NCBI GenBank assembly: GCA_000442125.1
Contig: KE546981.1
Span: 558,001 to 622,000, forward strand
Direction of reading: 5' to 3'
Source of the DNA: Opeltia flavorubescens
Lineage: Eukaryota; Ascomycota; Lecanoromycetes; Teloschistales; Teloschistaceae
Length of the DNA: 64,000 bases
In this document: positions 7,086 to 38,345 of the stretch, piece by piece
Numbering within the stretch: the first letter of the stretch is position 1
Layout: every line of letters begins with the position of its first letter
The notes under the pieces: model-generated
Seen by the model: the letters and a program-made list of their open reading frames with translations, nothing else
Databases searched by the model: none
What the model was told of the DNA's origin: nothing
Translations under genes and position numbers: made by a program

Positions 7086-7198
7086 ATAAATAATAATTAT
7101 TTTTATAAATATTATTAATAGAATTAATTATTTCGATATAATTCTTCCGTATTATTTAAAGATTATAGGCTATTTTTAAATATACACGTTTAAAAGCT

Positions 7199-7321
7199 TA
7201 AAGCGTTTAATTTAAGCGTCTACTAGCCAAGAAATTATTCCTATATAATAAACCTATTTTTTTTTTTTTTTTTTTTTTTTTTTAAGCTTCTATTTAACTA
7301 AATAGGCTTTTTTTTTACTTT
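7199..7321. repeat. LTR-like terminal repeat, right copy
   Basis: This is the second copy of the repeat seen at 1-117, in the same orientation. It has a longer poly-T run (about 7257-7283) followed by AAGCTTC and CTATTTAACTAAATAGGC. For a minus-strand element this is the 5-prime LTR. The poly-T is a poly-A run in the element's own sense. Confidence 0.8.
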
Positions 7322-13300: not shown

Positions 13301-15110
13301 AATAAAAAGGATTCCTTATTAATAGGTTCGAAAAGTTTCTAAATATAATATATTTTATTATATATAATAAAGAGTTATAGTCCGCGGTTAAAAATATAAT
13401 AATAATCGCTTTAATACTTAATTAAAGTAAATATAAAAATATTATTATAGCGCCGAATATTCTTTTAAAACTTTTTATTATAGAGTATTTACTTAGTAAA
13501 AAGATTTTTTAAAGGCTAGAGTATTTTTAAAAAAAAATCTATCGATTTAACTAACTAGCCTTTTTTATAATAAAGCTTGTATTTTATAACGGAAGCTAAT
13601 ATATCTAAAATACGTTTTTTAGCCTAGTATTTCGCGTGATAATAAAAGTAGATAAAATATATTTATATTCTAATATAATTCGATATACTATAGGGGCTAA
13701 TATAATAGAAAATTATCTTATATAATTCCGATTTATATTTAGTTAGTATAAATAATAACCTATTTTTTTAACAGCTTTATTAACTATAGTAAGGCCCGGC
13801 TAGATAATATAGCGAATCTAGCTAGTTAGATTTTTTTTAAAATAATTCCTCTTTTTTTATAAGATTTAAATTAAATTTTAAAATAATAGATTAAAAGCGA
13901 TTAAAAAAATATAAAAATATTAATATCTAATTTAAAAATATATTAGAATTTATTTTAAACGGAATAAAGCTTTTAAAAATATTATTATAGAGGAAATTAG
14001 CTTTAAAGTCCGAATTAAAGTTATTATTAATAATAAATTTAAAATTAAAATTAAAATTACAATCTTTATTTATAAAAGAAAAAAAAGGTTATAAATTATA
14101 ACTTTTAGCTATTTTTATTAAAAACTATTTCTAATATATCTAATACAACTTTTATAGTAAAGTAGAAACTATTATTTTTAAATTTCGATTAATATTTCTA
14201 GATAAAAAGGGTATATAATATATTAGATATTCGGTTTAAAAACGCGGCGGTAGAATTACCTATAGTTATCCGTAGAGTCGAATTTATTAATATAGTATTT
14301 ATATATTATAAAAACGAGAGCGATAAAAACTAAAAAGATAAAACTATTTTAAAAATAATAATTTATTTTAATTCGACTAAATATTTATATTAAAACTTTT
14401 TAAAAGCGACCGTTTTAACTAGTATATTAGCTGCTACTAGAAGTAAAAGGAATCGACGCTACTTTATTTCGGTAAATACTATATATAGTATAGTATTTAT
14501 TTAGTTTTTATACTAATAGAGGCTTTTTAAAGTTAAATTAATATTTAAAGTATTTATATTAATTATAATATCGAATCGATTCGAATAATATATTAAAAGG
14601 ATTTAAAAATAATAAAATTAGTAATAAAAAAAAATTTTTAAAAAGAGATAGAAAGATATTTAGATAATAATAGTAGTATAATAGGAGGTATAATATTAAT
14701 ACGTAATAAAAAGAAAATAAATAAAATTAGGTTAATTTAAATCGAATTGTATCGAAATAAAAAATTTTTTAAATATAACTTATAAAAGATAGTATAAAAA
14801 ATAAATAAAATAAAAAAACTATTAAAAAAACTTTATATTAATACTAATAGTATTAATAATATTAGATTTTAAAATTAAAAAATATATTTAAATACGCTTG
14901 ATACGCTTTATAATTTAAAATATTTTTTATTCTATTATATATATAGTAATATTATTAATTTATAATTATATAGAATCTAGTAGTTTTAATAGTTAAAACC
15001 CTTAAAATCGAATTAACCGGATTTATAACTATAAACGTTCGATATTAACCGATAAAATTTATATTTATTTCGGGTCGGGAAGCCGATAAAAAACGTTTTC
15101 TAATATATAT
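7322..15110 (+). other. RIP-damaged coding-like tract, unidentified
   Basis: About 7.8 kb in which CG is common and the plus strand repeatedly reads as protein-like sequence between scattered stops. One clear stretch is near 11150-11650. It includes the run NNFFSIYSTPESPNIEYYS and continues in one frame with few interruptions. Another is near 13050-14000. I do not recognise the product. The size, the lack of intact genes and the neighbourhood suggest a large transposable element or several nested ones. No LTR, terminal inverted repeat or poly-A tail could be paired around it. The density of surviving CG is higher than in the A family at 18-33 kb, so it has had a different RIP history. It could also hold more than one element. 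Confidence 0.4.
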
Positions 15111-16750
15111 ATAATATATTAAATTAATAAATAAATTTATAATAAAAATTTTTTTAAAATTTTTATATATATAATAATTTTCAAATTTATTATAAAAATA
15201 TTTTAATAAATAATAAATAATTTTAAAAATATTAATAATAGTAATATTAAATAAAAAATATTAAAATAGCTTTTGATTTTTTATATAGATTTATTAAATA
15301 GAGTAATAGAAATATAATTAATTTAAATATTTATATTATTTATAAAATAATTATAAAGGTTAATAAATTAAAAAATAATAAATAATCTAATTATATTTTT
15401 TTTAAATACTATTTTAAATATACACGTATTTATAATTATTATAAAAAGCTATTATTAAAAATAAAATATTATCTTTTAATTAGAATATAGAATAATTATA
15501 AATAATATAATATTTTAATCCTTTTATATAAATTTAAATACTTTTTTATTATTTAAAAGTAATTTATATAATTTATTTTATTTTAATTATATTTTATCGT
15601 TTATTTTTAATTATATTAATAATAATTAAAAAATTTTATTTAATTTTTTATATATATATTATAATTTAATATTTATTTTCTTTTTTAATTATTTTTAAAT
15701 AGTTTTTTAAATATATATTATACCGGCGGTATTAAAATCTTTTTATTTAATATAATAAATAAACGGGCCGATATAAAAAAATTATCTAAATAAATAATAT
15801 ATATATTTTTTTTATTTATATCTTTTTAATTAATTAAATCTAAAATATTTATTCAAATTTTAAAAAATTTTATATATTTATTATTAATTTAAAACTAATT
15901 TAAATTAATAAAATTATTATTTTTATTATTACTTTTTATAAAATATAATTAATTTAATATATATTTTTTATTTATTAATCTTTATATTTTAAAACCTTTT
16001 AATTAAAATTTAATAAAAATATTTATTATTATTTTTATTTAATTTATAAATTATTAAATAATTTTATTAATAATTAATTTAATAATTATTTACTAATATT
16101 TTTTAAATAAAATTTAAAATTTATTATTTAATAATTAAAATTTATTAAATAAAATTTTTTTTATATTAAAAGCGGGTAAATAAAAATATAAAAATAGCGG
16201 TCGATTTATTACTAACGCGTTTTATTTATATAATTTATAATAGTTATATATAAAAAAATTTTTTTTTATTTATATTCCAAAAATATTTAGATATAATTTT
16301 ATTATATATATTTATTTAAATATAAATTATAATATAAATTTATAATTTAAAAAAAATAATAAATTTTTATATATATTTATATTTTATTAAAAGATTTAAA
16401 TAATATTTTATTAATAAAATTAATATTATTTGCTAATATAAATAGAATTTTATTAGTAAAAAAGAATATAAAAATTTTATATAAATTATTTTTACTAATA
16501 TATAATAATAAAAGGTTTTTATTATATATAAAATCGCTATAAGTTTATATAAATTTAAATATAAATATTTTTTATAGTACTAGCAGAAATTTTTTAAATT
16601 TTTTAATAGATTTTTTAATAGAAATAGAATTAATATTATTATTAATATATTTAAATATTATAAATAAATAAATATAATAATAATAATAATATTAAAATAT
16701 TTAAAAAAAAATTTTATTATTTAAATCGCGATACGTTATAAAAGAGTAAT
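15110..16750. other. AT-rich stretch with no recognisable feature
   Basis: This stretch is almost pure A/T, with a few C/G islands near 15720-15770 (ACCGGCGG, ACGGGCCG) and 16170-16220 (AGCGGGT, AGCGGTCG). I found no repeat partner within the window, no open reading frame and no RNA-like structure. It is probably heavily RIP-degraded repeat DNA. Confidence 0.5.
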
Positions 16751-16758
16751 AGAATAAA

Positions 16759-17170
16759 GCGCCAAGTTTTTTAATATTATACCTAACTAGAAATAGAATA
16801 AATATCGAGTATTTAAAAGCTATATTATTCGAGTTTGGAAAAAAAAATCTAATCGCCCGTCTATTTATAATTAAAGATCTTTCTCGAGATATAATCGAAA
16901 TACTAGGTTTAGCGTTCGAAATCGACCCTATATTTTTCCGCGGCTATATCTCGGATTACTACGTGGTATAATACGCGCGATCTATAAATCGAGTTCCCGG
17001 AACTGGATATAATCGCTCGTACTCAATTTTATAATAACCTTATAGATTATATAAAAGTATATAATAATATTATAGTAATATAAATCGTTACAGCTTTATT
17101 ATTAAATCGCTATTTTTATATACTACCTCTTTTATTTATTAATTGTAGTCGATTTCGCCGTGGAGCTAAT
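16759..17170 (+). pseudogene. CorA-like domain gene fragment (host-type gene, RIP-touched)
   Basis: Read in one frame from 16759 the plus strand gives a continuous stretch of about 70 residues. It includes NIEYLKAILFEFG, then ARLFIIKDLSRDIIEILGLA, then FEIDPIFFRGYISDYY. The order is a beta-strand lead, an L-S-R-D-x-I-x-x-L-G segment, F-x-I-D-P-x-F-F, and then H/Y-I-S-D-Y followed in the next frame by W-Y-N-T-R-D. This is the recognisable N-terminal pattern of fungal CorA-like (magnesium-transporter-like) domain proteins. A one-base shift lies between SDYY and WYNTRD (near 16965), and TGG codons beyond it read as stops. The reading continues as EFPELDIIARTQ to about 17040. The C-terminal membrane part is missing: repeat C begins at 17261. 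Some CA dinucleotides survive here, so RIP was lighter than in neighbouring repeats. Confidence 0.65.
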
Positions 17171-17260
17171 ATATATAAAAGCTATTTATTATTAAATAAA
17201 TATTTTAATAGAATTTTTAATATAAAATAATATTTTATATTTTTATTTTAAAAAAAAATA

Positions 17261-17803
17261 TTGCGGTTATATTATATAAATATAAAATTAATAGAATAAA
17301 TAAAATTAAATAGTTATTATAACTCGAAAAAACCCTTTTAAATATATTTATCTAGTTAAATTTAGCGTTTTTTAGCGTTTATATTAATTTAATTATAAAA
17401 TATATTTTTATTTATTTAATTATAAATTTTATAAATAGATAAATTTTTTAATTTTAAAATATAATATTATTATTTTATATAAATTATATTATAAATAATA
17501 ATTACTAAAAAGAATATTAATATTATAAAATATTATTAACTTTTATATATATATATATATATATATTATTAATTATTTTATAATATTCGATTCTTTAAAT
17601 AAATTTAATTTTTTTTTTATTTATTAAACTATTATTTTAATATTAATATTCGATTAATAAAATAAATTAAAATATAATCTAATTTTTAATTTCAACGGAA
17701 ATTTGAATATTTTTTATAATAATTTAAAGAAATTAATTAATTTTATTTTTAATTTAGTTTTTATTTTTATTATTTTTTATATCAAAATATTTTAATATTA
17801 TAT
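17261..17803 (+). mobile_element. Repeat C copy 1, first piece (retroelement fossil)
   Basis: This piece aligns in the same orientation with 36233 onward. Shared landmarks are TTGCGG/ACTATATTATATAAAT and TTATTATAACTCGAAA followed by TATATTTATCTA. It is cut at 17803 by the inserted A element, after which the match to copy 2 resumes at 25134. It contains a (TA)n run at 17544-17566. The start near 17261 also cuts off the CorA-like fragment. It is broken and non-coding as it stands. Confidence 0.65.
17544..17566. repeat. (TA)n microsatellite
   Basis: A perfect TA dinucleotide run of 23 bases inside repeat C copy 1. The corresponding place in copy 2 (about 36490) has only a short TA run, so it expanded locally. 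Confidence 0.85.
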
Positions 17804-18016
17804 TATAAGATCGCTATATAAATAGCCTGCGAACCTCGAGTTAATAGAATTATATAGTAGAATATAGAAAACGTTTATCTAGATAATAATAGAATTAATT
17901 ATAAAAAAATTAGTAATTTAAAACCTATAGAGTTTTTATTAAATATAAACGCTATTTATATTAAAAATAACTTTATTTTTTATAAATTTTATATTTATTA
18001 AATTTTTAATTTTATA
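17804..18016. repeat. LTR, family A copy 1, left
   Basis: This 213 bp terminal repeat is paired with 24921-25133. It also matches, inverted, 33324-33536 and 26181-26392. It keeps more G/C (GATCGC, GCCTGCGAACC) than the interior. Confidence 0.85.
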
Positions 18017-21000
18017 ATTATATCTTTTTTAATTAAATTTAATCTTTTAAATTCTATTAATAAATAGTAAATTTATATAATATATTATTACTTTTTATTA
18101 GCCGGTATATTATTATATTAAAATTTATAAAATTTAATTTTATAAATTATAAATAAACGGACTTTATATATAATTATAAAATTTAAATACTTTATAATTT
18201 AATTAAAAATATAATTTTTTTTTTAATTTATTTAATTAATTTAAATAAATTAAATTAATTAATTTAATTTTATTTAAATATTTATAAACTATAAACTTTT
18301 TATTTATAATATTTATTTAATATTATTTTATAAAATTTAAAAAATTAAATTTATAAATAAATATATTAAAATTTTATTTTTTTATTTATTATAAAATAAT
18401 TTAAAATAATATAAAACTTTTTTAAAATTTTTTTAAAAAATAAAATTTATAAATTTTAACTTTTAATTATATTAAATTATTTTTAAATATTTAATTTATA
18501 AATAAATAATATTTTTATTATATAATTTTCTTTTTTTAAAAATTATTTTATTTATTATATAATAATAAAATATTTTATATTTATTTTAATAATATTAAAT
18601 TATTTTTTATTATATAAAGTTATTTAAAATTTAATTTTTAGTTTTAATTTACTTTTAAAAAGTATATAATAAAAAATATAGAATAAATTAAAATTTTTTT
18701 AATAATTATATTTTTTAAAAAGCTATAAATATAATAAAAAAATAAATTATTATTTTTCTATTTAATTATTATTTATTAAACTTTTTTTTATTTTTATAAT
18801 ATTTTTTTAGCGAATATTTTTTAAAATATTTAAATAATTATATTTTTTTTTTAAATTTTTATTTTTTATTAAGCTATAAATTTTTTATAATTTTTTTTTT
18901 ATTTTAAATTTAAAATTATAATTTATTATATAAATATAAATTTTAATTATTATTATAATTTATTTATTAAATTATAATACTAGAATTATAAATTTCTTTT
19001 ATTTTTTTAAAATTTTTATTTAATTTTATAAATTCTAATTAATTTAATAAATAAATAAATTTAAAATTAATTTTTTAAATTTTCTATATAATCTTTACTA
19101 TAATTTTTTTATTTAAAAAAAATTATAAAAAGAAGCTATAGTTTAAAAGTATATAGAAAATAGATTTTTTAAATATTTAAATTATAATTTTATAATTTAT
19201 AATTTTAATAATATTTTTAAATAATTATTTAAATTTTTAAATTTTTTTAATTAAATATTAATATAATTTCTTTTAATTAATAAAAAATTAATTTAATATA
19301 TATAATATATTAAATATTTTATAATAAATTTTATAAATAATTATTATATATTTATAAAAAAAACTATTAAATATAATTACTATTTTTTTATTAATTATTA
19401 ATATAAATAAAATATTTACACTTTAAAAAAATAATATATATTTAAAAATTTCTATTAATATTTTTATTTAAAAGCGAATTTTAAAATTATTTTTATTTTT
19501 TAATAATAATATTTTTAGAAATTTAAAATAAAATTTTTTATAAAATATAAACCCGTTAATACTATTATTATAATAATAATAAATATAATTAAATTTTTTA
19601 TTTTTATAATAATAAAATTTTTTATTTTATTATAAAATATAATAAATAATATTTAATAAATTAATAAAAAAATATATATTAGTAATTATTCCTTTAATTA
19701 TTTATTTAAAACTTTTATTAATAATTTATTTTTAAATTTAATAATTAATAGTTTTATTTAAAAAGATAAATATATTATAAATTAATTTATAGAAATAATA
19801 ATTATTTAAATTAATTTAATAATATAAATTTTTTAATTTATATATAAATTTTTAATAATAATTTTTTAGATAATTAATAAATTTTATATAATTTATTTCT
19901 TTTTTTTTTACTTTTAAATATATTTTTTATTTTAATTTTTATTTTTTTAATATACTTATTTTTAATTTTATTTATTTAAAATTTTTAATAAATTTTTTTA
20001 TATTATTTAAATTACTAATTAGCTTTTAAAAGTTTTTAAAATATATAATATTAATTTAATAAATTAAATATTAGAATTTATTTTTAATTATATATTTTTT
20101 AAATATTTATTTTATTTTATTTTTTTTTTTATTTTTTATTAAAATAGGCTAAAATTTAATATTTTTTAATAGAAATATTATAGTTTAAATAAATTAATAT
20201 AAAATATAAAAGAAATTTTTTTATATTATTTAAATAATTTAAAATAATAAATTTATTTATTATTTTTTTTTAAAATTTTAAAAGGCCCTAATTATTTATA
20301 ATTTAGTTTTTTTTTATATTTTAAAAATATAGATATTAAAACTTTATAATAGTATTTTATTACTTTTTTAAAAATTTATAATTTTATAATAAATATTATA
20401 ATATTTTATTTATTATTTAAAATTTTTTTATAGAATTTAATTAAATATTTTTTTAAATTTTTTAATTAATTTATTTTTTTAAATATTAAAGGCGTTTTTT
20501 TTTTAAAAGCTATATTTTTAAATTTAATTTTTAAAATAATAATATATTTTTTAAATAATTTATTTAATAGTTTACTAGTATTTATATATATATTATTATT
20601 ATAAATAAATTTTATTAAAAATAGTAATTTTAATTATTTATTTTATTTATAATTATAATAAATTTATAAATAATATTTTAAAATTTAATTTTATTATTTT
20701 ATTTAACTATTAATTTAAAAATAAAATATAATATTAAATTTTTTTTTAATATTTAAATAATAATAAAAAATATTTTAGAATTTATTTATAAAAAATAATT
20801 TTTTATTATTAATAATTTTTTATATAATTTTATAAAATTTAATAAATTAATATTATAATAATTTTATAAACTTTTTTATATTAATATTTTTAATAATAAA
20901 AATATAAATTATATATTTAATTAATTTATTTATTAATATAAAAATTAAATTATAAGTTTTTTTTATATAAAAATCGATTATAAATAATAAATTAATAATA

Positions 21001-24000
21001 AAATCTATAGGTATTATATAAAATAATTTTATATTTTTTAATAAAATTAATTTTAATTAATAATTAAAACTATAATAATAAATTTATATTTTTTAATAAT
21101 TATAATATATTTTATAATAATTTTTTATTTTTTTAATTATATTTAATTAATAATATTTTTTATAAATTAAATTATTTTATTTTTTTTTATAAAATAATCT
21201 ATTTTAAAATTATTATAATTTATATAAAAAATTTTTTTTTATTATTAAATTATTAAATATATAAATTATTAAATTTTTTTAAAATAATTTATTTTTTTTA
21301 ATTTTTTATTTTAAAAGTTTTTTTTAATTAATAATAAATTTTTAATATTATTTCTTTTTTATAATAAAAATATCCTTTTATAAAAATTTAAAAAGCTATT
21401 CTATTATAAATAATTATATATTTAAAAAAATAATTTTAATTTAATAATTTATTAAATTAAAAACCGGGAATTTATAAAATTTAAAAATTTATAAATTTTT
21501 TTAAATTTTTTTTTATTTTTATAAATAGCGAAAGTATTTATAATAAATATACTACTTAATTATATTATTAGAATTATAATAAATTTAATTATTATAAAAA
21601 TTTTATTTTTTTTTTATAATTTAAATTAGTAATTTTTATTATAATATTTATTTTATAAAATAAATAAAAAATTATTATTATTATTTTTATTATTAATAAA
21701 TTTTATAATATTATATTTTTTAAATAATATATTATATAAATTTAATAAATTCTTTTAATATTTTATATAAAAATTAAATATTATTAGTTTTTTTATTTAT
21801 TATATTTATTTTATAATAAATTTTTTTATAATTATAAAATATTTAAAATTATTATAATTTATAATTATATAAATTACTATTTAAGTTTTTTATAAATAAT
21901 ATTATTAATTTTTAAAATTTAATATTATAATATAAAGCTTTTTATTGTATATATTTTAATAAAATTCTATATTTTTAAATTTATAATTAAAAAATATTAT
22001 TAAATATTAATATAAATTTTTTTTTAATTTTTAATTAAAAATTCCTTTTATTTTATATTTTAATATATTTATTTTTATATAAATTTTAGTATTTATATTA
22101 TAATACTATAAAATAGAAAATAAAATAAAAGATTTTTATAATTTTTTAAAATTTTTTATATTTTTTTAAATTAAATAAATTTAAATATAGTTTATTTTTT
22201 TTTTATTTTTTATATTAGATCGGTTAAAAGAGTAATTATTTATAAAAAAATTTTTATAAATCGTTTATAAAATTTTTTAATATTTAAAAATATTAGAATA
22301 TTTTTTATATTTTTTAATATTAGTTATTTATTTTATAATTTTAATTTTTAAAAACTTTATATAAATTTTTTATTAATTTATTATAAAATTTAAAAATATA
22401 ATTTTAATATAATTAAAAATTTATTTTAATAATTTTATATATAAATAATATTTTAATAAAATTTTAATAATTATATAAATATATTTTTAATACTTTTTTT
22501 TATTTTTAAAATAGATTAATATATTATTTAGATAAATTATAAAAAAAATATTTAAATAAAATTATAATACTTTATTAATATATAATTAGAATATAATAAA
22601 AGTATTTATAAAATTAAATAATATAATTTAATATTTAAATTATTTATAGCGAGTTTAAAATATAATTTTTTATTTATTTTTTTCTTTAATTTAAATATAA
22701 TAATAAATATTATAAATAGTATTTTTAATAAATTATTTTATATATATAAACCTATTTAAAGTTTTTAATAATAAAAATAAAAAATATTTATTTTTAATAA
22801 TAATTTTATTAAAATTTCTATAATTTATATAGAATTATAAACTATTATTTATTTTTTTAATAAATAATATTAATATTTTTATTAATATATTTAAAAGTTT
22901 TATTTAATTTTTAATTTATATATTAATAAAATAATTTTAAATTATTACTAATTTATTTAATAATATATTATAAATTAAATTTATTTTTAATTATTTATTT
23001 AATTTTAAATTTATAAAATAATTTATTTAATTATATATATTTAAACTATTAATAAACTTTTTTAAAAAAAATTTTATTAAATTTTATAAAATTAATAGAA
23101 TTTTAAAATTTTTAATTTATATTATACTATATTTTATTATTTTTAAAATAATTATTTTTATTTTTAAATTAAATATTAATTAATAAAAATATATAATTTA
23201 TATACTACTTTTTTTATTTATTATTAGTATTATTAATTTAATAAATTTTTTTATAATATAAATATTAATTTAATTTAATATCGTTTTATAAATAATAGAA
23301 ATATTTTTATAAATTTATTTCTAATTTTATTAATAAATATTAAAATTTATTTTTATTAATTAAAAATAGCCTAAAATTATATTATATTTATATATATTTA
23401 TTATATAATAATTATTTTTTTAATTTTTTTTTATTTTATAATTATTTATTAAATTTATATTTAATAAATAAAAATTATAAAATAATATTTAATAATTATC
23501 TATCGTTTTAATTTATTTTAAAATTATTTAATTTTTAAATAAAAAATTTTTTTAATAAATATTTATAAAATAAAATTTTTTTTTATATTAGAATTAATTA
23601 AATAATAAACTATTTAAAGTTTTATAAATATATTAATATATATAAAAATTATTATAGTAAATATTTATTATTTAATTATAAATAATTTTAATATAATAAT
23701 AATATATATTAAAAATTTTTTTTTTATATATTTTTTTTTATTATATTTTTTTTACTTTTTTATAAATTTAAAATATATAAAATTATTTATTTTATATTTT
23801 TTAATTTTATAAATCTAATATTTTATTTTAAATATTATTTTTTTATATTTTTTTAAATATTTAATTAAATTTTAATTATTATTTTTATTATAATTTAAAT
23901 TTTTTTTTTTATAAATTTATTTTTTAATTATTTTATTTAAAGGATTAAATATTTTTATAAAATATTTTATTATTTAATTTAAATATAATATTTATTTTTT

Positions 24001-24920
24001 ATATTTTAATTTAAATATAATATATTATATTAAAAAAATTTTATAAATTTTTAATTTTTTAAAATATTATAATATTTAATTATTAATATATTTATTTATT
24101 TTAATTTATAAATAAAAAATTTTTATAAATTTATTTTTTAAATAATTTAAATTATTATATTATTATTATAAATATTAATTAAATATAAATATTAATTATA
24201 ATTTTAAATATTTTATAAATTCTAGCCGGATTTTTATTTATATATTCTAAATTATTAAATTATTAAATATATTTTTATAAAATTTAATAAAATTATTTTA
24301 AATAAATAATTTATTTTTAATATTTAATAATTTAATATAATTATATTAATAAATTTTTTTTTTTAATAAAAAAATCTTTTTATAAAATATTAATATATTT
24401 TTTATAATTAATAAACTATTATATTAAATTTTTATATTTAATATATAGCTATTTATTAAATATTTTTAATCTATTAGCTTTTTTTTTAATATTTAAAAAA
24501 AACTAATAATAATTATTATTATATTATTTTTAATAATCTATACTAGTTTTTAATTAAATAATTTATAGATAAATTTTTAATAATTTATTTTTTAATTCTA
24601 GTTTTTAAATATAAAATTAAATTTATAATATTTATATTCTAATTTTTTTTTTAATAAAATTAATTTATTAAAAATTCTATTTATTTAATTATTTATTATT
24701 TTAATACTTTTTTTATTAAATAAAAATTAATTCGCTAGATTATTTTTATTATTTCTACTCGGATTTTTAAATAGATTTTATTTATTATTACTAAATTTTA
24801 TAATTTAATTCTTTTATAAAACTTTTAGCTATTTTAAAATTTATATATAAAACTTTTTTTTTTAAATTTTTTTTATTATTTTTATTAAACAATTTTTTAT
24901 AATTAAAAAATAATTAAAAT

Positions 24921-25133
24921 TATAAAATTATTAAATAAATAATCTATAAACTTTAAATTAATAAAGCTGCGTAATAGAATATAAAAAACGTTTATTTAAA
25001 TAATAATAAAATTAATTACTAAAAAATTAATAGTTTAAAATCTATAGGGTTTTTATTAAATATAAACGCTATTTATATTAAATATAGTTTTATTTTCTAT
25101 AAATTTCACGCCTATTAAATCTCCGGCTTTATA
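24921..25133. repeat. LTR, family A copy 1, right
   Basis: The 213 bp partner of 17804-18016. It ends CCGGCTTTATA and is followed by TATAT. It carries the shared block TATAAACGCTATTTATATTAA seen in all four LTRs in one orientation or the other. Confidence 0.85.
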
Positions 25134-26180
25134 TATATTAAATAATTTTTATAATAAAATTAAACGTTTATAATTATTTTTTAAATTTATATTAATTATA
25201 TTTATAAAAGAAATCCGAGTTTATATTATTTTATAATATAAAAATTATTAAAATAAGAAAATAATTTAAATTAATATAGTTTTTATTATTATTTATTTTA
25301 TAATTTAAAATTAATATTTATAAATTTTTTTTAAAATAATAAATAATTTCCGTAATAATATTATTATAATTTTTAAAAATAAAAACTTTTGAAAATATAT
25401 TAAAAAACTAATAGAAAATTTTATTTAAAATAATTTAAATTTTTATTTTTATTTTTTAAATTAATAAAAAAAATATAATAATTTAATAAATTAATAAATA
25501 TTATTAAATTTACTTACGCGTTAAAACAATAAAATTATAATATTTTTAATATTAAATTTATTTAATTTTATTTTATAAAATTAATAAATAATATTTTACT
25601 ATTATTAAATAAAATAAAATTTTTATTATAATAATAATAGAAAAAATTTATAAATAATAATATTTTAATATAATAATAGTATATTTTTTTAAATAATTAA
25701 CTATTTATAAACGTCCGTTTAATTTAATTACTAGAATTTTTTATATAAAAACTTTAAAATTAACTAATTATTATATTAATAGATTTAATATTTATATTAA
25801 TAATTATTAAATTATAATAAAAGCTCGCGATATTAATTTATTTTAATTTAATAATAAAAAATAGTTTTTAAAATTTAGAAAATTATAAAATATTTATTAT
25901 AATAAATATATTTCAATTTTTTTATATAATTATAAAATATAAAATAATAAATATATTATAAATATATTAAAATCTAAATTTTTATTTATAAAGCAAAATA
26001 ATTATATAATATATTATTATTATTAATATATTTATTTATAAATTAATATTAATAAATAAAAATTTTAAATTATAATAAAAAATTTAAATATTTTTTTTAA
26101 AATATTTTAATAATATTATTATAAAAATAAAAAATAGTTTAATAATAATTAATATTAATTATTAAATATTTTAATATTTA
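25134..26180 (+). mobile_element. Repeat C copy 1, middle piece
   Basis: It continues the alignment to repeat C copy 2 (about 36735-37715). A good anchor is TTATATTAATTATATTTATAA followed by CGAGT, present at 25185 and 36790. It is the 1047 bp spacer between the two inverted A elements, so it forms the loop of the giant inverted repeat. Confidence 0.65.
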
Positions 26181-26392
26181 TATAAAGCCGGAGGTTTAGC
26201 GGGTATAAAATTTATAAAAATAGAGTTATATTTAATATAAATAGCGCCTATATTTAATAAAAATTCTATAAATTTTAAACTATTTATTTTTTAATAATTA
26301 GTTTTATTATTATTTAAAGAAATATTTTTTATATTTTATTATATAATTTTATTAATTTAAAATTTATAAATTATTTATTTAATAATTTTATA
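26181..26392. repeat. LTR, family A copy 2, left
   Basis: It begins TATAAAGCCGGAGGTTTAGC and is the reverse complement of the 24921-25133 LTR. It is paired with 33324-33536. Confidence 0.85.
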
Positions 26393-29300
26393 ATTTTAAT
26401 TATTTTTTAATTATAAAATATTATTTAATAAAAATAATAAAAAAAATTTAAAAAAAAAACTTTATATATAAATTTTAAAATAATTAAAAACTTTATAAAA
26501 AAACCGAATAATAAAATTTAATAATAATAAATAAAATTTATTTAAAAATTTAAACAGAAATAATAAAAATAATTTAATAAATAAATTTTTATTTAATAAA
26601 AAAAATAATAAAATAATAAATAATTAAATAAATAGAATTTTTAATAAAATAATTCTATTAAAAAAAAATTAGAATATAAATATTATAAATTCGATTTTAT
26701 ATTTAGAAAATAAAATTAAAAAATAAATTATTAAAAATTTATTTATAAATTATTAAATTAAAAATTAATATAAACTTTTAAAAATAATATAATAATAATT
26801 ATTACTATTTTTTTTTAAATATTAAAAAAAAAATTAATAGATTAAAAATATTTAATAAATAGCTATATATTAAATATAAAAATTTAATATAATAGTTTAT
26901 CGATTATAAAAAATATATTAATATTTTATAAAAAAAATTTTTTATTAAAAAAAAAATTTATTAAATAATTTTTAAATTTAATAATAAATTTAAAATTTAA
27001 TAATATAATTATATTAAATTATTAAATATTATAAATAAATTATTTATTTAAAATATTTTTATTAAATACTATAAAAATATATTTAATAATTTAATAATCC
27101 GGAATATATAAATAAAAATTTAATTAAAATTTATAAAATAATTAAAATTATAATTAATATTTATATTTAATTAATATTTATAATAATAATATAATAATTT
27201 AAGTTATTTAATAAATAAATTTATAAAAAATTTTTATTTATAAATTAAAATAAATAAATAAATTAATAATAAAACGCTATAAAATTTTTAAAAATTAAAA
27301 ATTTATTAAATTTTTTTAATATAATATATTATATTAAAAAAATTTTTATAAAAAATATATATTATATTTAAATTAAAATATAAAATATTTAATAAAAATA
27401 TTTAATTTTTTATATAAAATAATTAAAAGAAAAATTTATAAAAAAAAAATTTAAATTATAATAAAAATAATAATTAAAATTTAATTAAATATTTAAAAAA
27501 ATATAAAAAAATAATATTTAAAATAAAATATTAGATTTATAAAATAAAAAAATATAAAATAAATAATTTTATATATTTTAAATTTATAAAAAAATAGAAA
27601 AAATATAATAAAAAAAAAATATAAAAAAAATATATTTTAATATATATTATAATTATATTAAAATTATTTATAATTAAATAATAAATATTTATTATAATTA
27701 TTTATTTATATATTAATATTATTATAAAATTTATAATTATTTATTATTTAATTATATTTAATATAAAAAAATATTTTATTTATAAATATTTATTAAAAAA
27801 ATTTTTTTATTTAAAAATTAAATAGTTTTAAAATAAATTAAAATAATAAATAATTATTAAATTTTATTCTATAATTTCTATTTATTAAATATAAATTTAA
27901 TAAATAATTATAAAATAAAAAAATATTAAAAAAATAATTATTATATATTAAATATATATAAATATAATAGAATTTTAGATTATTATTAATTAATAAAAAT
28001 AAATTTTAATATTTATTAATAAAATTAAAAATAAATTTATAAAAATATTTTTATAATTTATAAAATAGTATTAAATTAAATAAATATTTATATTATAAAA
28101 AAGTCTATTAAATTAATAATATTAATAATAAATAAAAAAAATAATATATAAATTATATATTTTTATTAATTAATATTTAATTTAAAAATAAAAATAATTA
28201 TTTTAAAAATAGTAAAATATAATATAATATAAACTAAAAATTCTAAAATTTTACTAATTTTATAAAATTTAGTAGAATTTTTTTTAAAAAAATTTATTAA
28301 TAATTTAAATATATATAATTAAATAGAATATTTTATAAATTTAAAATTAAATAAATAAATAAAAATAGATTAAATTTATAATATATTATTAAATAAATTA
28401 ATAATAATTTAAAATTATTTTATTAATATATAAACTAAAAATTAAATAAAGTTTTTTTTTATTTTCTAGTTAAAATATTAATATTATTTATTAAAAAAAT
28501 AAATAATAATTAATAATTATATATAAATTATAAAAATTTTAATAAAATTATTATTAAAAATAAATATTTTTTATTTTTATTATTAAAAACTTTAAAAGTT
28601 TATATATATATAATTATTTATAAAAATTAATATTTATAATATTTATTATTATATTTAAATTAAAGAAAAAAATAAATAAAAAATTATATTTAAAATTTAT
28701 TATAAATAATTTAATTATTAAATAATATTATTTAATTTTAAAAATATTTTTATTTTAATTTAATTATATATTAATAAAATATTATAATTTTATTTAAATA
28801 TATTTTATATAATTTATTTAAATTATATATTAATTTATTTTAAAAATAATAAAAAATATTAAAAGTATATTTATATAATTATTAAAATTTTATTAAAATA
28901 TAATTTATATTTTTTAAATTATTAAAATATATTTTTAATTAGATTAAATCTATATTTTTAAATTTTATAATAAATTAGTAAAAAATTTATATAAAGTTTT
29001 TAAAAATTAAAATTATAAATAAATAGCTAGTATTAAAAAATATAAAAAATATTTTAATATTTTTAAAATTTATAGAGTTTTATAAATAATTTATAAAAAA
29101 TATTTTATAAATAATTATTTTTTCAACCGACTTAATATAAAATATAAAAAAAAAAAATTAGATTTAAATTTATTTAATTTAAAAAAAAATTTTTATTTTA
29201 ATTTTTATTTTATAATATTATAATATAAATATTAAAATTTATATAATAAAAAATATATTAAAATATAAAATAAAAGGAATTTTTAATTAAAAACTAAAAG

Positions 29301-32300
29301 AAAATTTATATTAATATTTAATAGTATTTTTTAACTATAAATTTAAAAGTATAGAATTTTATTAAAATATATATAATAAAAAATTTTATATTATAATTTT
29401 AAACTTTAAAAATTAGTAATATTATTTATAAAAATTTAAAAAAATAATTTATATAATTATAAATTATAATAATTTTAAATATTTTTTAATTATAAAAAAA
29501 TTTATTATAAAATAAATATAGTAAATAAATAAACTAGTTATATTTCTTTTTTATATAAAATTTTAAAAAGAATTTATTAAATTTAATTAATATATTATTT
29601 AAAAAAATTTAATATTATAAAATCTAATAATAATAAAAATAATAATAATAATTTTTTATTTATTTTATAAAATAAATTTTATATTAAAAATTACTAGTTT
29701 AAATTATAAAAAAAAATAAAATATTTAAAATAATTTAATTTATAATAATTTTAATAATAGAATTAAATAGTATAATTATTATAAATATTTTTACTATTTA
29801 TAAAAATAAAAAAAAATTTAAAAAAATTTATAAATTTTTAAATTTTATAAACTTTCGATTTTTAATTTAATAAATTATTAAATTAAAATTTTTTTTTAAA
29901 TATATAATTATTTATAATAAAATAATTTTTTAAATTTTAATAAAAAAATTCTTTTATTATAAAAAAGATATAATATTAAAAATTTACTATTAATTAAAAA
30001 AAATTTTTAAAATAGAAAATTAAAAAAAAATAAACTATTTTAAAAAAATTTAATAATTTATATATATAATAATTTAATAATAAAAAAAGTTTTTTTATAT
30101 ATATTATAATAAATTTAAAATAGATTATTTTATAAAAAAAAAATTAAAAAATTTAATTTATAAAAAATATTATTAATTAAATATAATTAAAAAAATAAAA
30201 AAGTATTATAAAATATATTTTAATTATTAAAAAAAAAGTATTTATTATTATAGATTTTATAATTAGTTAAAGTGAATTTTATTAGAAAATATAAAATAAT
30301 TTTATATAATAATAATAAAATTTATTACTAATTTATTATTTATAATTAATTTTTATATAAAAAAAATTTATAATTTAATTTTTATATTAATATATAAATT
30401 AATTAAATATATAATTAATATTTTTATTATTAAAAATATTAATATAAAAAAATTTATAAAGTTATTATTATATAAATTTATTAAATATTATAAAATTATA
30501 TAAAAGATTATTAATAATAAAAAATTATTTTTTATAAATAAATTTTAAAATATATTTTATTATTATTTAAATATTAAAAAAAAGTTTAATATTATATTTT
30601 ATTTTTAAATTAATAGTTAAATAAAATATTAAAATTAAATTTTAAAATATTATCTATAAATTTATTATAATTATAAATAGAATAATTAGTTAAAATTATT
30701 ATTTTTAATAGAATTTATTTATAATAATAAAATATATATAAATATTAATAAACCGTTAAATAAATTATTTAAAAAAAATATATATTATTTTAAAAATTAA
30801 ATTTAAAAATATAACTTTAAAAAAAAATATTTTTAATATCTAAAAAAATAAATTAATTAAAAAATTTAAAAAAATATTTTATTAAATTTTATAAAAAAAT
30901 TTTTAAATAATAAATAAAATATTATAATATTTATTATAAAATTATAAATTTTTTAAAAAATAGTAAAATATTATTATAAAATATTAATATTTGTATTTTA
31001 AAATTTAAAAAAAAGCTAAATAATAAATAATTAGAGCCTTTTAAAATTTTAAAAAAAATTAATAAATAAATTTATTTTTTAAGCTATTTAAATAATTTAA
31101 AAAAATTTATTTTATATTTTATATTAATTTACTCGAATTATAGTACTTTTATAATAAAAATACTAAATTTTAATCTATTTTAATAAAAAGTAAAAAAAAA
31201 TAATAAAAAGAATAAATATTTAATAAATATATAATTAAAAATAAATTCTAGTATTTAATTTATTAGATTAATATTATATTTTTTAAAAATTTTTAAAAGC
31301 TAGTTAATAATTTAAATAATATAAAAAAATCTATTAAAAATTTTAAATAAATAAAATTAAAAGGGAAAATTTAAAAAAAAATAAAAATTAAAATAAAAAT
31401 TATATTTAAAAGTAATAAAAAAAAGGATAAATTATATAAAATTTATTAATTATTAAAAAAATTATTATTAAAAGGTTATATATAAATTAAAAAATTTATA
31501 TTATTATACTAATTTAAATAATTATTATTTTTATATATTAATCTATAATATACCTATATTTTTAAATAAAATTATTAATTATTATATTTTAAAGTAAATT
31601 ATTAATAAAAGTTTTTAAATAAATAATTAAAAAAATTATTATTAAAATTTATTTTTTTAATAATTTATTAAATATTATCTACTATATTTTATAATAAAAT
31701 AAAAGCTTCCGCTATTATAAAAATAAAAAATTTAACTATATTTACTATTTTTAAAATAGTAATATTAATAAATTTACGTTTTATAATAAACTTTAATTAA
31801 TATTTCTAAAAATATTACTATTAAAAAATAAAAATAACTCTAAAATTTACTTTTAAATAAAAATACTAGTAAAAATTCTAGAATATATATTATTTTTTTT
31901 TAAATAAATACTCTATTTATATAAATAATTAATAAAAAAATAGTAGTTATATTTAATAGCTTTTTTTATAAATATATAATAAATATACGCGTAATTTATT
32001 ATAAAGCGTTTAATATATTATATATATTTAATTAAATTTTTATTAATTAAAAAAAATTATATTAATATTTAATTTAAAAAAATTAAAAAATTTAATAATT
32101 ATTTAAAAATATTATTAAAATTATAAATTATAAAATTATAATTTAAATATTTAAAAAATCTATTTTTTATATATTTTTAAACTATAGCTTTTTTTTATAA
32201 TTTTTTTTAAATAAAAAAACTATAATAAAAGTTATATAAAATATTTAAAAAAATTTATTTTAAGTTTATTAGTTTATTAGATTAATTAGAATTTATAAAA

Positions 32301-33323
32301 TTAAATAAAAATTTTAAAAAAATAAAAGAAATTTATAATTCTAGTATTATAATTTAATAAATATATTATAATAATAATTAAAAATTATATTTATATAATA
32401 AACTATAATTTAATATTTAAAATAAATAAAAAGCTATAAAAAATTTATAATTTAGCGAAAAATAAATATTTAAAAAAAAGAATAATTATTTAAATATTTA
32501 AAAAAATATTTATTAAAAAAAAATATTATAAAAATAAAAAATGGTTTAATAAATAGTAGTTTTATAAATAATAGCTAAATAAAAAAGTAATTATTTTTTT
32601 TTTTATTATATTTATAATTTATTAAAGAATATAATTTTTAAAAAAATTCTAACCAATTTTATATCTACTATTATATATTTTTTAAAAGTAAATTAAAGCT
32701 AAAAATCGAATTTTAAACGATTTTATATAATAAAAAATAATTTAATACTATTAAAGTAATTTTAAAATATTTTATTATTCTATAATAAATAAAATAATAT
32801 TTTAAAAAAGAAAATTATATAATAAAAATATTATTTATTTATAAATTTAATATTTAAAAATAACCTAATATTATTAAAAGCCGAAATTTATAAATTTTAT
32901 TTTTTAAACAAATTTTAAAAAAATTTTATATTATTTTAAATTATTTTATAATAAATAAAAAAAGAATATTTTAATATATTTATCTATAAATTTAATTTTT
33001 TAAATTTTATAAAATAATATTAAATAGATATTATAAATAAAAAATCTAAAATTTATAAATATTTAAATAAAATTAAAATAATTTATTTAATTTATTTAAA
33101 TTAATTAAATAAATTAAAAAAATAATTATATTTTTAATTAAATTATAAAATATTTAAAATTTATAATTATATATAAAGTCCGTTTATTTATAATTTATAA
33201 AATTGATTTTTATAGATTCTAATATAATTATATACCGGCTAGTAAAAAATAGAAGTATATTATATAAATTTATTATCTATTAATAGGATTTAAAGGATTA
33301 AATTTAATTAAAAAAAATTAAAT

Positions 33324-33536
33324 TATAAAACCGAAGGTCTAGAGGGTATAAAATTTATAAAAGGTAGAACTATATTTAATATAAATAGTACCTATATTTA
33401 AAAAAAATTTTATAAATTTTAAACTATTAATTTTTTAATAATTAATTCTATTACTATTTAAATAAACGTCTTTTATATTCTATTATACAGCTCCGTTAAC
33501 CCGAGGTTTACAGGTTATTTACCTAGCGATCTTATA
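33324..33536. repeat. LTR, family A copy 2, right
   Basis: It starts TATAAAACCGAAGGTCTAGA and ends ACCTAGCGATCTTATA. It is the reverse complement of 17804-18016. This is the least RIP-damaged of the four LTRs by eye: TTAACCCGAGGTTTACAGG survives. Confidence 0.85.
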
Positions 33537-34150
33537 ATTAAATTATATATATTTATTTTTAATAAAATTATAATAAATATTATTAAAATCTTTTATAATT
33601 CTTTTAAAAAAAAAAGAAAATTTTTTAATATTTATAATAATAATAAAAACTATAAATTATTAAAATTAAATTTTTTTTAAAAAAATAAAAATAAATAAAA
33701 TAAAATAAAAATATAATATATATTATAAAATAACTTTTATTATATATTTAAATATCTATTTATATATTTGAACTATATATAAAAAAATCAATCGAATATA
33801 TTTTCTATTATATATTAAGATTAAAATTAATTTATTATTTTATAAGATTTATTAATTAAAAGTTAATTTAATATATAAAATAATTAGCGGACTATTTAAA
33901 ATAATTATTAGTAGTTTTTATCTAAAACTATTACTCCGTTATAATAAAATTAAAATAAAAATTAATGTAATTATAATAATTAATAATATAATAATAATCG
34001 GAATTTATATAAAAATCGCTATTTTAATAATTAATAAACCGATTTTTAATAAAAAACTTCTATTAAATAGATTTTAAATAATAAAATAAAATAATACTAA
34101 AAATATAAAACTAGTTTTTATTAATTAAAAAATTTTATTAAAATTAAATA
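33537..34150 (+). mobile_element. Repeat C copy 1, last piece
   Basis: It resumes the alignment to copy 2 (about 37715-38345). Anchors are ACTATATATAAAAAAA, then TAATTATTAGTAGTTTTTAT followed by AAAACTATTACTC. It stops near 34150, where the sequence switches to family B. Summed with the other two pieces, copy 1 is about 2.2 kb against about 2.1 kb for copy 2. Confidence 0.6.
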
Positions 34151-36230
34151 TATATTATTATTAAATTATAGAAATATTTAGTATTTAAATTCTAAATTGA
34201 AGTTATATAACGAAAATATATTAAATAACTAGTATAATAGGCTTTTTAAAAACTATTAGCGGGATTATTTATATAATTATTATCCAATATAAAATTAATA
34301 AATTTTAGATATATAATAATCCTTTTTATTTATTTTTAATAAATAAAAATTAGTTTTTTAATATATTTTAATATATATATTATAAATAGATTTTTTATAA
34401 AAATCTACGCTTTTAGATTAATTTAATTATATTTAATATATTATAATTTCAATTTTTTTTCCTTTATATTTATAGGCCTGGATTATTATTAAAAATATTT
34501 ATTAAAAAAGTTCAAGATTATACTAAAAATAGGAATAATAATAATAATATAATTTTAATTTTTAAAATTCGAATATTTAATTAAAAACTATATATATAAT
34601 TTTAATAAGCGAATATTCTAATATAATTTATTGAATAATTTTTCAAAATAAAAATATTATATTTTATATAATAATATTATAAAATTATTATAGAATAATA
34701 GTATTATTTAAATAAATTTAATATTAAATTCAAATATTTATTAATATAAAAATAGAAAATAAATATATAATATAACTTTATTTTTTTATTATTAAATTTA
34801 AGTAAAAACAGCTATAATAATAGTAATTTCTCGAATATCTTTTGAATTTTATAAATAGAATAAAAAATTAAAGATTAAAACTATAAAATAGAAAAAATTA
34901 TTTAATATATTTATTATTTTAAAAAAATTAGAGTAATTTATTAATAAATTTAAATAATACTTTAAAAGTTTTATATATTTATTATTAAATTTATTTCTAA
35001 TAAATAAAATATAAATCCGGTTTATTATATTATTAATAAAAAAGTATTTTTTAATATAATAAATTTCGTATATAAAAACGAATAAAACTATTATAAATTA
35101 ATTTAAATTTTATAAATAATTATTTAATTTATTATTAAATAAAAAAAATCGGTTTTTAAATTTATTATTAAAATATTATAGATTAAAATAAAATAATATA
35201 ATATTTTAAAAGCTATATAATTATATAAAAATATTTGAAAAGTAATTAACGAGATTTTTTAAATTATAATAATCTAAAATAAATTCTATTATTAAGATTA
35301 TATATAATATTTAAATTTTAATATATTAAATAGAATATATATTAAAAAATAAATAAAAAAATAAATAAATAATACTAGCTACTCGTATAAAAAATATTAT
35401 AAAAAATATTATTATAAATCCTTTTTATAAAAAAACCTTTTTTAAAATTAAAATAATTAAAATAAATAAATTTTCAAAAAATTTGATAATAATTATATAA
35501 AAGATAAAAAAAAGTATAATAATTATAAATTTTATAATAAGCCTTTTATAAAATTAAAAAATAATAAAAATATTGATTTAAAAAATTTAAATTAAATAAA
35601 ATATTATAATTATTTTAAAAAAAATTTTTATTTTATTTACTATTTTTATATAAAAAAATTAATGAAAAAAGTATTTATTAAAAATTCTAAATTTAAGAAT
35701 AGTAAAAATTTTAATATATCTTTAAAAATTAAATAAATTTAAATAAAATTTTAATATTTCAATATAAACTAATTAAAATAATAAAAAAATTAAAATAATA
35801 TTTTATTTTTATATAAAGAAATAGATTAAAAAATATTTTTAAATTATTAAATATAAGGTTCAATATTAATTATATTTTATAAGCTAAAATAATAGAATAT
35901 AGATAAAATACCTATAAATTTTTAAATAATTTTTTAAAATATACTTTATTATATATATATAAATAGTATTAATATTAAAAAATTCAGTTAATATTAATAA
36001 TATACAAGCTTTATATTAAATTAAAATTTTTAAATTTATATTTTTTATAATAGAATCGAGTATATTATCCATTTTAAAAATTTAATAATTATATTATTAG
36101 TTTAATATAAAATAAAAAATAATAATATAAATTAATATATAATTTATTAAATAATAAATAAAAAATATTATATCGATATTTCAAAAAAGCTTTTAAAAAA
36201 AAGCTGAATCTAATATTTAATTTTATTAAT
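34150..36230 (+). mobile_element. Ty3/gypsy fossil, family B copy 1 (gag-to-protease part only)
   Basis: This part is collinear with about 6930-4440 of copy 0 on the opposite strand, with some length differences. A strong anchor is AATATTTAATTAAAAA followed by TATATATA and AATAAGCG. Another is ATTAATTATATTTTATAAGC, then TAAAATA, near 35860 here and 5065 there. A block near 35600-35660 has the look of a gag zinc-knuckle region. It lacks both LTRs. Its 3-prime end is cut at about 36230 by repeat C copy 2, exactly where copy 0 continues toward reverse transcriptase. It is broken. Confidence 0.65.
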
Positions 36231-36232
36231 TA

Positions 36233-38345
36233 TTGCGACTATATTATATAAATAAAAAATTAATAAAGTAAATAGAGCTAAATAGTTATTATAGCTCGAA
36301 AGAATTTTTATAAATATATTTATCTAATTAAATTAAACGTTTTTTAATATCTATATTTATTTAATTAAAGATTTTATAAATAGATTATTTTTTATCTTAA
36401 ATATATTATTATAACTTTATATTTATAATATAAAAAATAATAGTTATTAAATATAGTTTATATAAAATATAATACTATTAATTTCCGTATATATATATTA
36501 CTAATTATTATATAATATTAAATTATCCCGATAGATCTAATACTATTTTATCTATTATACTACTATTTTTCTTTTAATATTCGGTGAATTAAATTAATTA
36601 AAATATATTTTAGCTTTTAATTTTATTAATAAAATTTTAGATATTTTTTATAATAATTTAAAGGATTTAATCGAATTTTATAATTTTATAAGCTTTTATT
36701 ATAATTATTTTCTATATTAAAATATTTTAAAAATATATTAAACGATTTTTAAAATAGAATTATATATTTATAATAATTTTTAAAATTTATATTAATTATA
36801 TTTATAAAAAAAATTCGAGTTAATATTATTTTTTAATATAAAAATTTTTTAATAACCGGATAATTTAAATTAATATAACTTTTATTATTATTTATTTTTT
36901 AAGTTAGAATAAATATTTATATATTTTTATTAAAATAATAAACAATTATTATAATAATAATATAATAGTTTTTAAAAATGAAAAATTTTAAATTTATATT
37001 TAAAAATAAATAATAAATTTTATTTAAAATAGTTTAAACTAATATTTTTATTTTTTAAATTTATTAAAAATTTATAATATTTTAATAAATTTATAAAAAT
37101 TACTAAATCTATTAATATATTTCAATAAAAAAATAATATATCCTTTAATATTAAATTTAATTTATTTTATTTAATAAAATCGGAAAAAAAATATTATACC
37201 GCCGCTAGATATAATAAAATTTTTCTTGTAATAAAAATAATAAAATAGATCTATAAATAATAATAATCTACTATTATAATAATATTTTTTTTTTATATAA
37301 CTAATTATTTATAAACGCCCGTTTAATTTAATTATTAGAATTTTTTATATAAAATTTTTAGAATTAATTAATTATTAGATTAATAAATTTAATAATTATA
37401 TTAATAATTATAAAACTAGAATAAAAAGTTTATAATATTATTCTATTATAATTAAAGAATAATAAATGGTTTATAAATTTTATAAAATTATATAATATTT
37501 ATTATAATATATACGCTTTTATATAATATATAAATATAAATTATAAAATAATAAATATATTATTAATATATTATAATTCAAATTTTTTTTCTAAAAATAA
37601 AAAAGTTATAGAATATATTATAATAATTAGTAAATTTATTAATAAATTATTATAATTAAAAAAAGATATTTAATAATAATATATATTTTTTAATAAATAT
37701 TTTAAAAAGCTATTATTTATTATACTAATATAGCTAAAATAAATATATTATACTTTTAATAATATATAGTCTAGAAAAAAAAATTAATTTAATATTTATA
37801 ATAGTAATAAAAATTATAAAGCGCTAAAATTAAACTTTTTATAAAAAAATAAGAGTAAATAATATAAAAAAGTAATAATATATTAATTATTATAAAATTA
37901 TTTTTTCTATATATATAAATATTTATTTATATACCCGAGCTATATATAAAAAAACTAGCTAAATATATTTCCTATTCTATACTAGTATTAGAAATTTTAT
38001 ATTATTTTATAAGTTCTATTAATTAAAAATAAATTTTATATATAAAAGAATTAGCGTATTATTTAAAGTAATTATTAGTAGTTTTTATTTAAAATTATTA
38101 CTCTATTATAATAATATTCAACCGGATATTAGTAAAACTATAATTATTAATAATATAATTATAGAATCTATATAAAAGCCGCTAATTAAATAATTAACGA
38201 ATTTACTTTTAATTAAAAGTTTTTAGCGAGTAGATTTTAAATAATTGAATAGAATAATATTAGAATTAGAAAAATAGTTATTTAATATTAATAAATTTTA
38301 TTACAACTAAAAATATAATTGATAAAAAGTTTAATAAAACTTTAT
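36233..38345 (+). mobile_element. Repeat C copy 2 (uninterrupted)
   Basis: The uninterrupted copy of the repeat that is split into three at 17261-34150. It begins TTGCGACTATATTATATAAA directly after a family B junction, so its left end is well placed. It is probably the 5-prime part of a retroelement whose body continues to about 39990. The first one to two hundred bases could be LTR. No open frame survives. Confidence 0.6.

What the first reader, a model, noticed from the sequence alone, without database searches (positions are those of the whole stretch)
17804..33536. Giant inverted repeat: two 7.3 kb gypsy copies head-to-head around a 1 kb loop
17804-25133 and 26181-33536 are inverted copies with matching 213 bp LTRs, pairing about a centre near 25,670. 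Arms this long could form cruciform or hairpin structures, promote rearrangement, confuse assembly and seed small-RNA heterochromatin. Both copies inserted into the same host repeat only 1047 bp apart.
Basis: seen in the sequence. Interest (0 to 1): 0.75.

Follow-up and report, generated by a model that had tools for sequence, protein, structure and literature searches.

The report
Two mutated retrotransposons in inverted pair
Two old copies of the same virus-like mobile element landed about 1 kb apart in opposite directions in what looks like a fungal genome, and a repeat-destroying mutation process then erased almost every C and G in them; the arrangement is ordinary, but the depth of the mutation is striking.

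Summary
Arms 17804-25133 and 26181-33536 align inverted end to end (6635 of 7271 ungapped columns identical), and homology stops at the LTR edges. LTRs are ~213 bp, ending TATA...TATA. Copy 1 has a perfect 5-bp target duplication; copy 2 is 4 of 5. A paralogue of the host repeat at 36347-38317 lacks both insertions, so these are two separate insertions into one older repeat, not a duplicated palindrome. 636 mismatches argue against an assembly echo. Two weak matches, in one minus-strand frame of copy 1 only, fit a Ty3/gypsy element with 5' ends facing each other. GC is 4.5% and CpA nearly absent: the signature of saturated repeat-induced point mutation (RIP). Cruciform and small-RNA roles are not supported. 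Verdict: an ordinary nested, RIP-killed LTR pair. The noteworthy point is composition: the arms are younger than their host repeat yet more depleted, and far below the 16.04% mean reported for Neurospora RIP regions. Repeated RIP of a tightly linked pair would fit, but is unproven; the loop test did not support it.

The parts
17804..25133 (-). Copy 1 of the LTR retrotransposon (arm 1), 7330 bp; coding strand minus, so its 5' end is the inner end
   Evidence: alignment, edges; strand from the RT_RNaseH_2 match, RT match and purine fraction 0.453 on +
17804..18016 (-). 3' LTR of copy 1, 213 bp, GC 15.5%
24921..25133 (-). 5' LTR of copy 1, 213 bp, GC 15.0%
17799..17803 (.). Target-site duplication TATAT, left of copy 1
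25134..25138 (.). Target-site duplication TATAT, right of copy 1
22301..22546 (-). Decayed reverse transcriptase stretch of copy 1; aligns to the RT of PDB 4ol8 over its YLDD motif (here YLNN)
   Evidence: the only PDB match up to E 10, 4ol8_A, E 0.94 (that 4ol8 is Ty3 is recalled)
21875..22159 (-). Decayed RNase H stretch of copy 1, same frame as the RT stretch
   Evidence: PF17919 RT_RNaseH_2, E 6.4e-5, 23.4 bits (below the curated cut-off of 29.8)
25134..26180 (.). Loop: 1047 bp of host repeat between the arms, GC 4.7%
26181..33536 (+). Copy 2 of the same element (arm 2), 7356 bp; coding strand plus, 5' end at the inner end
   Evidence: strand by alignment to copy 1 and purine fraction 0.546 on +; no protein match of its own
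26181..26393 (+). 5' LTR of copy 2, about 213 bp (212 in register), GC 10.8%
33324..33536 (+). 3' LTR of copy 2, 213 bp, GC 21.1%
26176..26180 (.). ATTTA left of copy 2; 4 of 5 match to ATTAA on the right, so target duplication inconclusive
33537..33541 (.). ATTAA right of copy 2
17402..17803 (+). Host repeat, left piece
   Evidence: score 340 vs null mean 138, sd 14
33537..34154 (+). Host repeat, right piece
   Evidence: score 561 vs null mean 148, sd 16
36347..38317 (+). Paralogous host repeat without either insertion (empty sites)

Best explanation
Two near-identical copies of one Ty3/gypsy-type LTR retrotransposon inserted separately, in opposite orientation and 1047 bp apart, into one copy of an older repeat in an AT-rich compartment, most likely of a filamentous ascomycete. 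The premeiotic RIP system then mutated C to T on both strands until almost every C and G was lost, killing both copies. The inverted-repeat geometry is a by-product of insertion chance. Shown: edges, LTRs, copy 1 target duplication, empty-site paralogue, C/G scarcity with CpA depletion, relative ages by transversions. Inferred: the Ty3/gypsy label (weak matches), the host lineage, that RIP rather than another process did it, and that two long, tightly linked homologous arms were good RIP substrates over several sexual cycles.
For: Alignment and sharp edges at the LTRs. TSD TATAT/TATAT and TATA...TATA termini, as RIP would make from TG...CA. Empty-site paralogue: host pieces z = 14, 25, 25; copy 1 joined flanks align through the site. 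Transversions: arms 222 of 6845 internal columns (3.2%), host repeat paralogues 7.9-10.6%, so the host repeat is older; LTR within-copy 3/213 and 4/212 are like between-copy 5, 5, 2 and 2 per ~213, so the insertions look about contemporaneous, on small counts. CpA 6 of 314 and 10 of 343 C per arm, substrate index 0.05 and 0.07, against means of 0.44 and 16.04% GC in N. crassa RIP regions (PMC6714961, passages). RT_RNaseH_2 E 6.4e-5 and the sole PDB match 4ol8, collinear in one frame. Other LTR-element remnants nearby.
Against: The domain matches are weak: 1 of 18 arm-1 pieces below its cut-off, the PDB match at E 0.94, and copy 2 gave 0 of 3 pieces. No gag, protease or integrase match. Copy 2 target duplication is 4 of 5 only and its empty site is blurred in the paralogue. 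TpA/ApT is 1.08, under the usual 1.1, probably because it tends to 1 when almost no C/G is left. No genome was held, so RID/DIM-2 genes, species and other copies could not be checked.
Confidence: 0.87

Rival explanations
1. A segmental inverted duplication (palindrome by breakage or template switching) copied one element and its surroundings in reverse.
For: One long antiparallel homology around a short loop.
Against: Homology between the arms ends at the LTR edges, outside and inside. The outer and inner flanks are three consecutive pieces of one host repeat, not inverted copies of each other. Copy 1 has its own TSD.
Confidence: 0.03
2. Assembly artefact: one copy echoed by a chimeric or adapter-missed long read.
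For: Inverted echoes around a short loop are a known long-read artefact (recalled); no reads were available.
Against: 636 mismatched columns and 144 gap columns spread over the arms; only 8 exact runs of 60 or more, the longest 96 bp. The flanks differ and the loop is host repeat.
Confidence: 0.04
3. A functional inverted repeat: it forms a cruciform or makes hairpin RNA that seeds heterochromatin.
For: Long arms, AT-rich and 91% complementary.
Against: Divergent orientation: LTR promoters would fire outward. The 1047-bp loop separates the arms. No closed stop-to-stop frame of 150 aa or more in the window (longest seen 122 aa). In Neurospora, RID is reported as required to nucleate a heterochromatic state on euchromatic repeats (PMC11969663, title, abstract part and passages).
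Confidence: 0.04
4. The low GC is native (organelle or an AT-rich genome), not RIP.
For: Whole window is 12.9% GC; product index only 1.08 in the arms.
Against: CpA is 17- to 25-fold below expectation (O/E 0.06 and 0.04) while CpG is over-represented, which simple AT bias does not do. Ty3- and copia-type remnants argue for nuclear DNA. 407 of 636 differences between the arms are transitions, most surviving C being in CpT.
Confidence: 0.05

Closest known systems
RIP-degraded Ty3/gypsy LTR retrotransposons in AT-rich compartments of Pezizomycotina (large RIP-affected regions)
   Same: LTR structure, 5-bp TSD, C-to-T decay centred on CpA, nested insertions, no genes found
   Different: GC 4.5% over 15.7 kb against a mean of 16.04% for N. 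crassa LRARs (PMC6714961, passages) and a 32.9% AT-rich peak in Anisogramma anomala (PMC10998396, abstract and passages)
Repeat-Linker-Repeat RIP tester constructs of Neurospora (PMC4858203, passages; PMC11969663, passages)
   Same: Two homologous arms around a short single-copy linker; single-copy DNA between close repeats is reported to be strongly mutable
   Different: Constructs in PMC11969663 have 802-bp repeats and a 729-bp linker; here arms are 7.3 kb and inverted, and the loop shows no significant excess of C/G loss (37 to 26, p 0.21)

Membership tests
LTR retrotransposon | Paired direct LTRs at both ends | tested here: met
   213-bp terminal repeats, 78% and 81% identical within each copy
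LTR retrotransposon | Short target-site duplication | tested here: met
   Copy 1 TATAT/TATAT; copy 2 only 4 of 5, inconclusive there
LTR retrotransposon | TG...CA termini | tested here: inconclusive
   TATA...TATA at both ends of both copies; fits RIPed TG...CA but the original is not seen
Ty3/gypsy | Pol with gypsy-type RT and RNase H, order RT-RH before integrase | tested here: inconclusive
   PF17919 E 6.4e-5 below its cut-off and 4ol8 E 0.94, collinear about 3 kb from the 5' end; no integrase or gag match; copy 2 none
Ty3/gypsy | Primer-binding site and polypurine tract | not tested
   Looked at by eye only; too decayed to call
RIP-affected region | Substrate index (CpA+TpG)/(ApC+GpT) at or below 0.75 | tested here: met
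   0.05 and 0.07 in the arms; threshold from PMC6714961 passages
RIP-affected region | Product index TpA/ApT at or above 1.1 | tested here: not met
   1.08 in both arms; 1.21-1.33 in 1-15000 and 39001-64000. The index tends to 1 when almost only A and T remain (inference)
RIP-affected region | RID/DIM-2 methyltransferases in the genome | not testable with these tools
   No genome held

The most novel reading that the evidence does not exclude
A closely linked inverted pair of long repeats acts as a self-sufficient RIP trap: the arms find each other at each sexual cycle, so C/G loss runs almost to completion (4.5% GC, down to 1.5% per kb) and spills some hundreds of bases into the host repeat, in elements younger than less-mutated neighbours.
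Probability: 0.2. Interest if true: 0.5.

Novelty: new member of a known kind. Interest (0 to 1): 0.27.

Why it matters
As an inverted repeat it is a chance pair of dead transposons. It is useful as a natural version of the repeat-linker-repeat constructs used to study RIP, with an internal comparison (the paralogous host repeat without insertions) that lets C/G loss in loop and flanks be measured. If linked inverted copies are generally more depleted than dispersed copies of the same family, it would show that linkage, not age, sets RIP depth in nature.

Tried and rejected
A first self-BLAST timed out with no output and was redone with stricter settings. Rfam at gathering thresholds and a tRNA scan gave nothing. 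Tandem repeat output (504 rows) was not used; in such AT-rich DNA I take it as noise. Three-base periodicity of purines gave no clear reading frame in the arms. I first took alignments of 15184-17401 and of 34155-35945 with the paralogue as real; resampling showed these outer parts to be weak or at chance (z 3.3 and 0.8). The distance table beyond the verified host pieces was therefore dropped; it had shown the opposite sign (paralogue lost more, 17 to 1 and 16 to 3) at 600-1400 bp left of copy 1. Only 17402-17803, 25134-26180 and 33537-34154 are used. A special excess of C/G loss in the loop was tested and not found (37 to 26, p 0.21), while both outer flanks showed it (23 to 6, 40 to 16). 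A gradient within the arms was looked for: 2 of 10 bins at p < 0.05, both in the outer third, arm 1 having lost more; no gradient is claimed. Relatives of the arms elsewhere in the window were sought by tiling arm 1: 5 of 15 tiles exceeded the maximum of only 6 resamples each, one clearly (337 vs 249), its neighbour collinear with it but barely above (253 vs 247), the other three barely above and not followed. Species identification failed: no genome, rRNA or tRNA was available. Published low GC values: seven of the ten paper searches aimed at this; in the passages I read no figure below 16.04% appeared for a real genome, which does not show that none exists. The OcculterCut survey of AT-rich regions is not held. 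The other three searches were on linked or inverted repeats.

Full report
Observation. The window is 12.9% GC and 17804-33536 is 4.5% GC, so chance similarity between nearly A/T-only sequences had to be controlled. Self-comparison finds the inverted match in three collinear pieces covering 17802-25135 against 33538-26179. Global alignment of the arms gives 6635 identical of 7271 ungapped columns (91.3%), with 407 transitions, 229 transversions and 144 gap columns in 17804-25133. The local score is 10968 against a mean of 2866 and a maximum of 2951 in 20 order-2 Markov resamples.

Edges. Homology between arms collapses at 17804/33536 on the outside and 25133/26181 on the inside. The ends are LTR ends: read along copy 1 on the + strand, TATAAGATCG at the outer end and CGGCTTTATA at the inner end, and the same reversed in copy 2. 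LTRs are 213 bp (one is 212 in register); identities between the four range from 76% to 86%. Copy 1 is flanked by TATAT on both sides; copy 2 by ATTTA and ATTAA, which is 4 of 5 and inconclusive.

Two insertions, one host repeat. The sequence left of copy 1 (17402-17803), the loop (25134-26180) and the sequence right of copy 2 (33537-34154) align in order to 36347-38317, which lacks both insertions. Scores against resamples: 340 vs 138 (sd 14), 1054 vs 365 (sd 27), 561 vs 148 (sd 16), with 60, 40 and 60 resamples. For copy 1 the joined flanks align through the site with small gaps beside it. For copy 2 the alignment crosses the site with more gaps, so the exact empty site is blurred. This speaks strongly against an inverted duplication of a larger block and makes an assembly echo unlikely.

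Relative age. Counting only transversions, which RIP does not make, the arms differ at 222 of 6845 internal columns (3.2%). The host repeat paralogues differ at 10.6%, 9.1% and 7.9% (left, loop, right; the right stretch ran about 40 bp past the verified edge). LTRs within a copy differ at 3/213 and 4/212; between copies at 5/213, 5/212, 2/213 and 2/212. So the host repeat duplication is older, and the two insertions look about as old as each other; the LTR counts are small.

Identity and strand. Pfam scanning of copy 1 in three pieces and six frames (18 pieces, X at stops) gave one match: PF17919 RT_RNaseH_2, E 6.4e-5, 23.4 bits against a cut-off of 29.8, at 21875-22159 minus. In the same frame just upstream, the only PDB sequence matched up to E 10 is 4ol8, labelled reverse transcriptase/ribonuclease H, which I recall as that of Ty3; it covers a stretch where its YLDD reads YLNN here (E 0.94). 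Each match is weak; together they are collinear, on one strand, and at a place that suits a Ty3/gypsy pol (about 3 kb from the 5' end; recalled layout). Copy 2 gave no match in 3 plus-strand frames of 28600-31200; it has a gap of about 27 bp at the start of the corresponding RNase H stretch. The purine fraction (0.453 on + for copy 1, 0.546 for copy 2) agrees with coding on minus and plus respectively. The 5' ends therefore face each other and both elements point outward. Of 57 pieces scanned (E up to 5; E up to 0.1), 3 had matches, to reverse transcriptase or its RNase H families only. Not scanned: 1-3599, 5301-17803, the loop, 33537-39000, and arm 2 other than 28600-31200 plus.

Mechanism of decay. 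In arm 1 only 6 of 314 C (both strands counted) are followed by A; in arm 2, 10 of 343. The substrate index is 0.05 and 0.07, while CpG is over-represented. Between-arm C/T differences lie mostly in CpT context. The product index TpA/ApT is 1.08, just under the usual 1.1, as I would expect when nearly all bases are A or T. I read this as RIP carried almost to completion. The RIPper paper gives 16.04% GC and a substrate index of 0.44 as means for large RIP-affected regions of N. crassa (PMC6714961, passages); the arms are far below. Outside the arms and loop, the regions tabulated are 8.5-20.1% GC.

Is the linked pair itself the cause? For: the arms are younger than the host repeat duplication (transversions) but more depleted. 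A related fragment near 3990-4500 keeps C/G at 26 and 27 aligned sites where arm 1 and arm 2 lost it, against 4 and 1 the other way (p 6e-5 and 2e-7). Host repeat next to the arms lost more C/G than its paralogue (100 to 48 pooled, p 2e-5; left 23 to 6, right 40 to 16). Against or neutral: the loop, where most spill-over would be expected, shows no significant excess (37 to 26, p 0.21). All verified host sequence lies within about 620 bp of an arm, so there is no distant control. The fragment is diverged and short, so it may simply have escaped recognition. The LTRs, part of the same repeat, keep 11-21% GC against 3.6-4.0% in the interior, which the trap idea does not explain. Original base composition is unknown. 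[quoted passage not shown] I give this reading 0.2.

Function. No closed stop-to-stop frame of 150 aa or more exists in the window (frames running off the ends are not listed); the longest listed is 122 aa. With 5' LTRs facing inward and firing outward, no LTR promoter would read through both arms, so a hairpin transcript is not expected. The 1047-bp loop and 9% mismatches make cruciform extrusion unlikely in my judgement; it was not computed. The best account is a by-product of nested insertion plus genome defence. Membership: LTR retrotransposon met; Ty3/gypsy likely but not proven; RIP region met on substrate, not on product index.

Noticed in passing
26951-28200: 1-kb windows with only 1.5% G+C, the lowest in the window; whole window 12.9%.
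   Followed up: partly
17804-18016, 24921-25133, 26181-26393, 33324-33536: The LTRs keep 11-21% G+C while the interiors have 3.6-4.0%; within LTRs it is uneven, highest in an end third of each. Original composition or sparing cannot be told apart.
   Followed up: partly
3990-4500: Relative of the arms' RT region (about 22419-22915 of arm 1), less depleted in C/G than either arm; may extend left to about 3382 on weak evidence.
   Followed up: partly
46310-46987: Copia-type reverse transcriptase remnant on the minus strand, PF07727 RVT_2, E 1.5e-21.
   Followed up: no
43069-43203: Another LTR-element RNase H remnant on the minus strand, PF17917 RT_RNaseH, E 2e-4, below its cut-off.
   Followed up: no
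4458-6947 and 34153-36224: A second inverted repeat pair at 80-83% identity, lying just left of the host repeat paralogue.
   Followed up: no
118, 47346, 55346, 60532: Four single N bases; two lie exactly 8000 apart.
   Followed up: no
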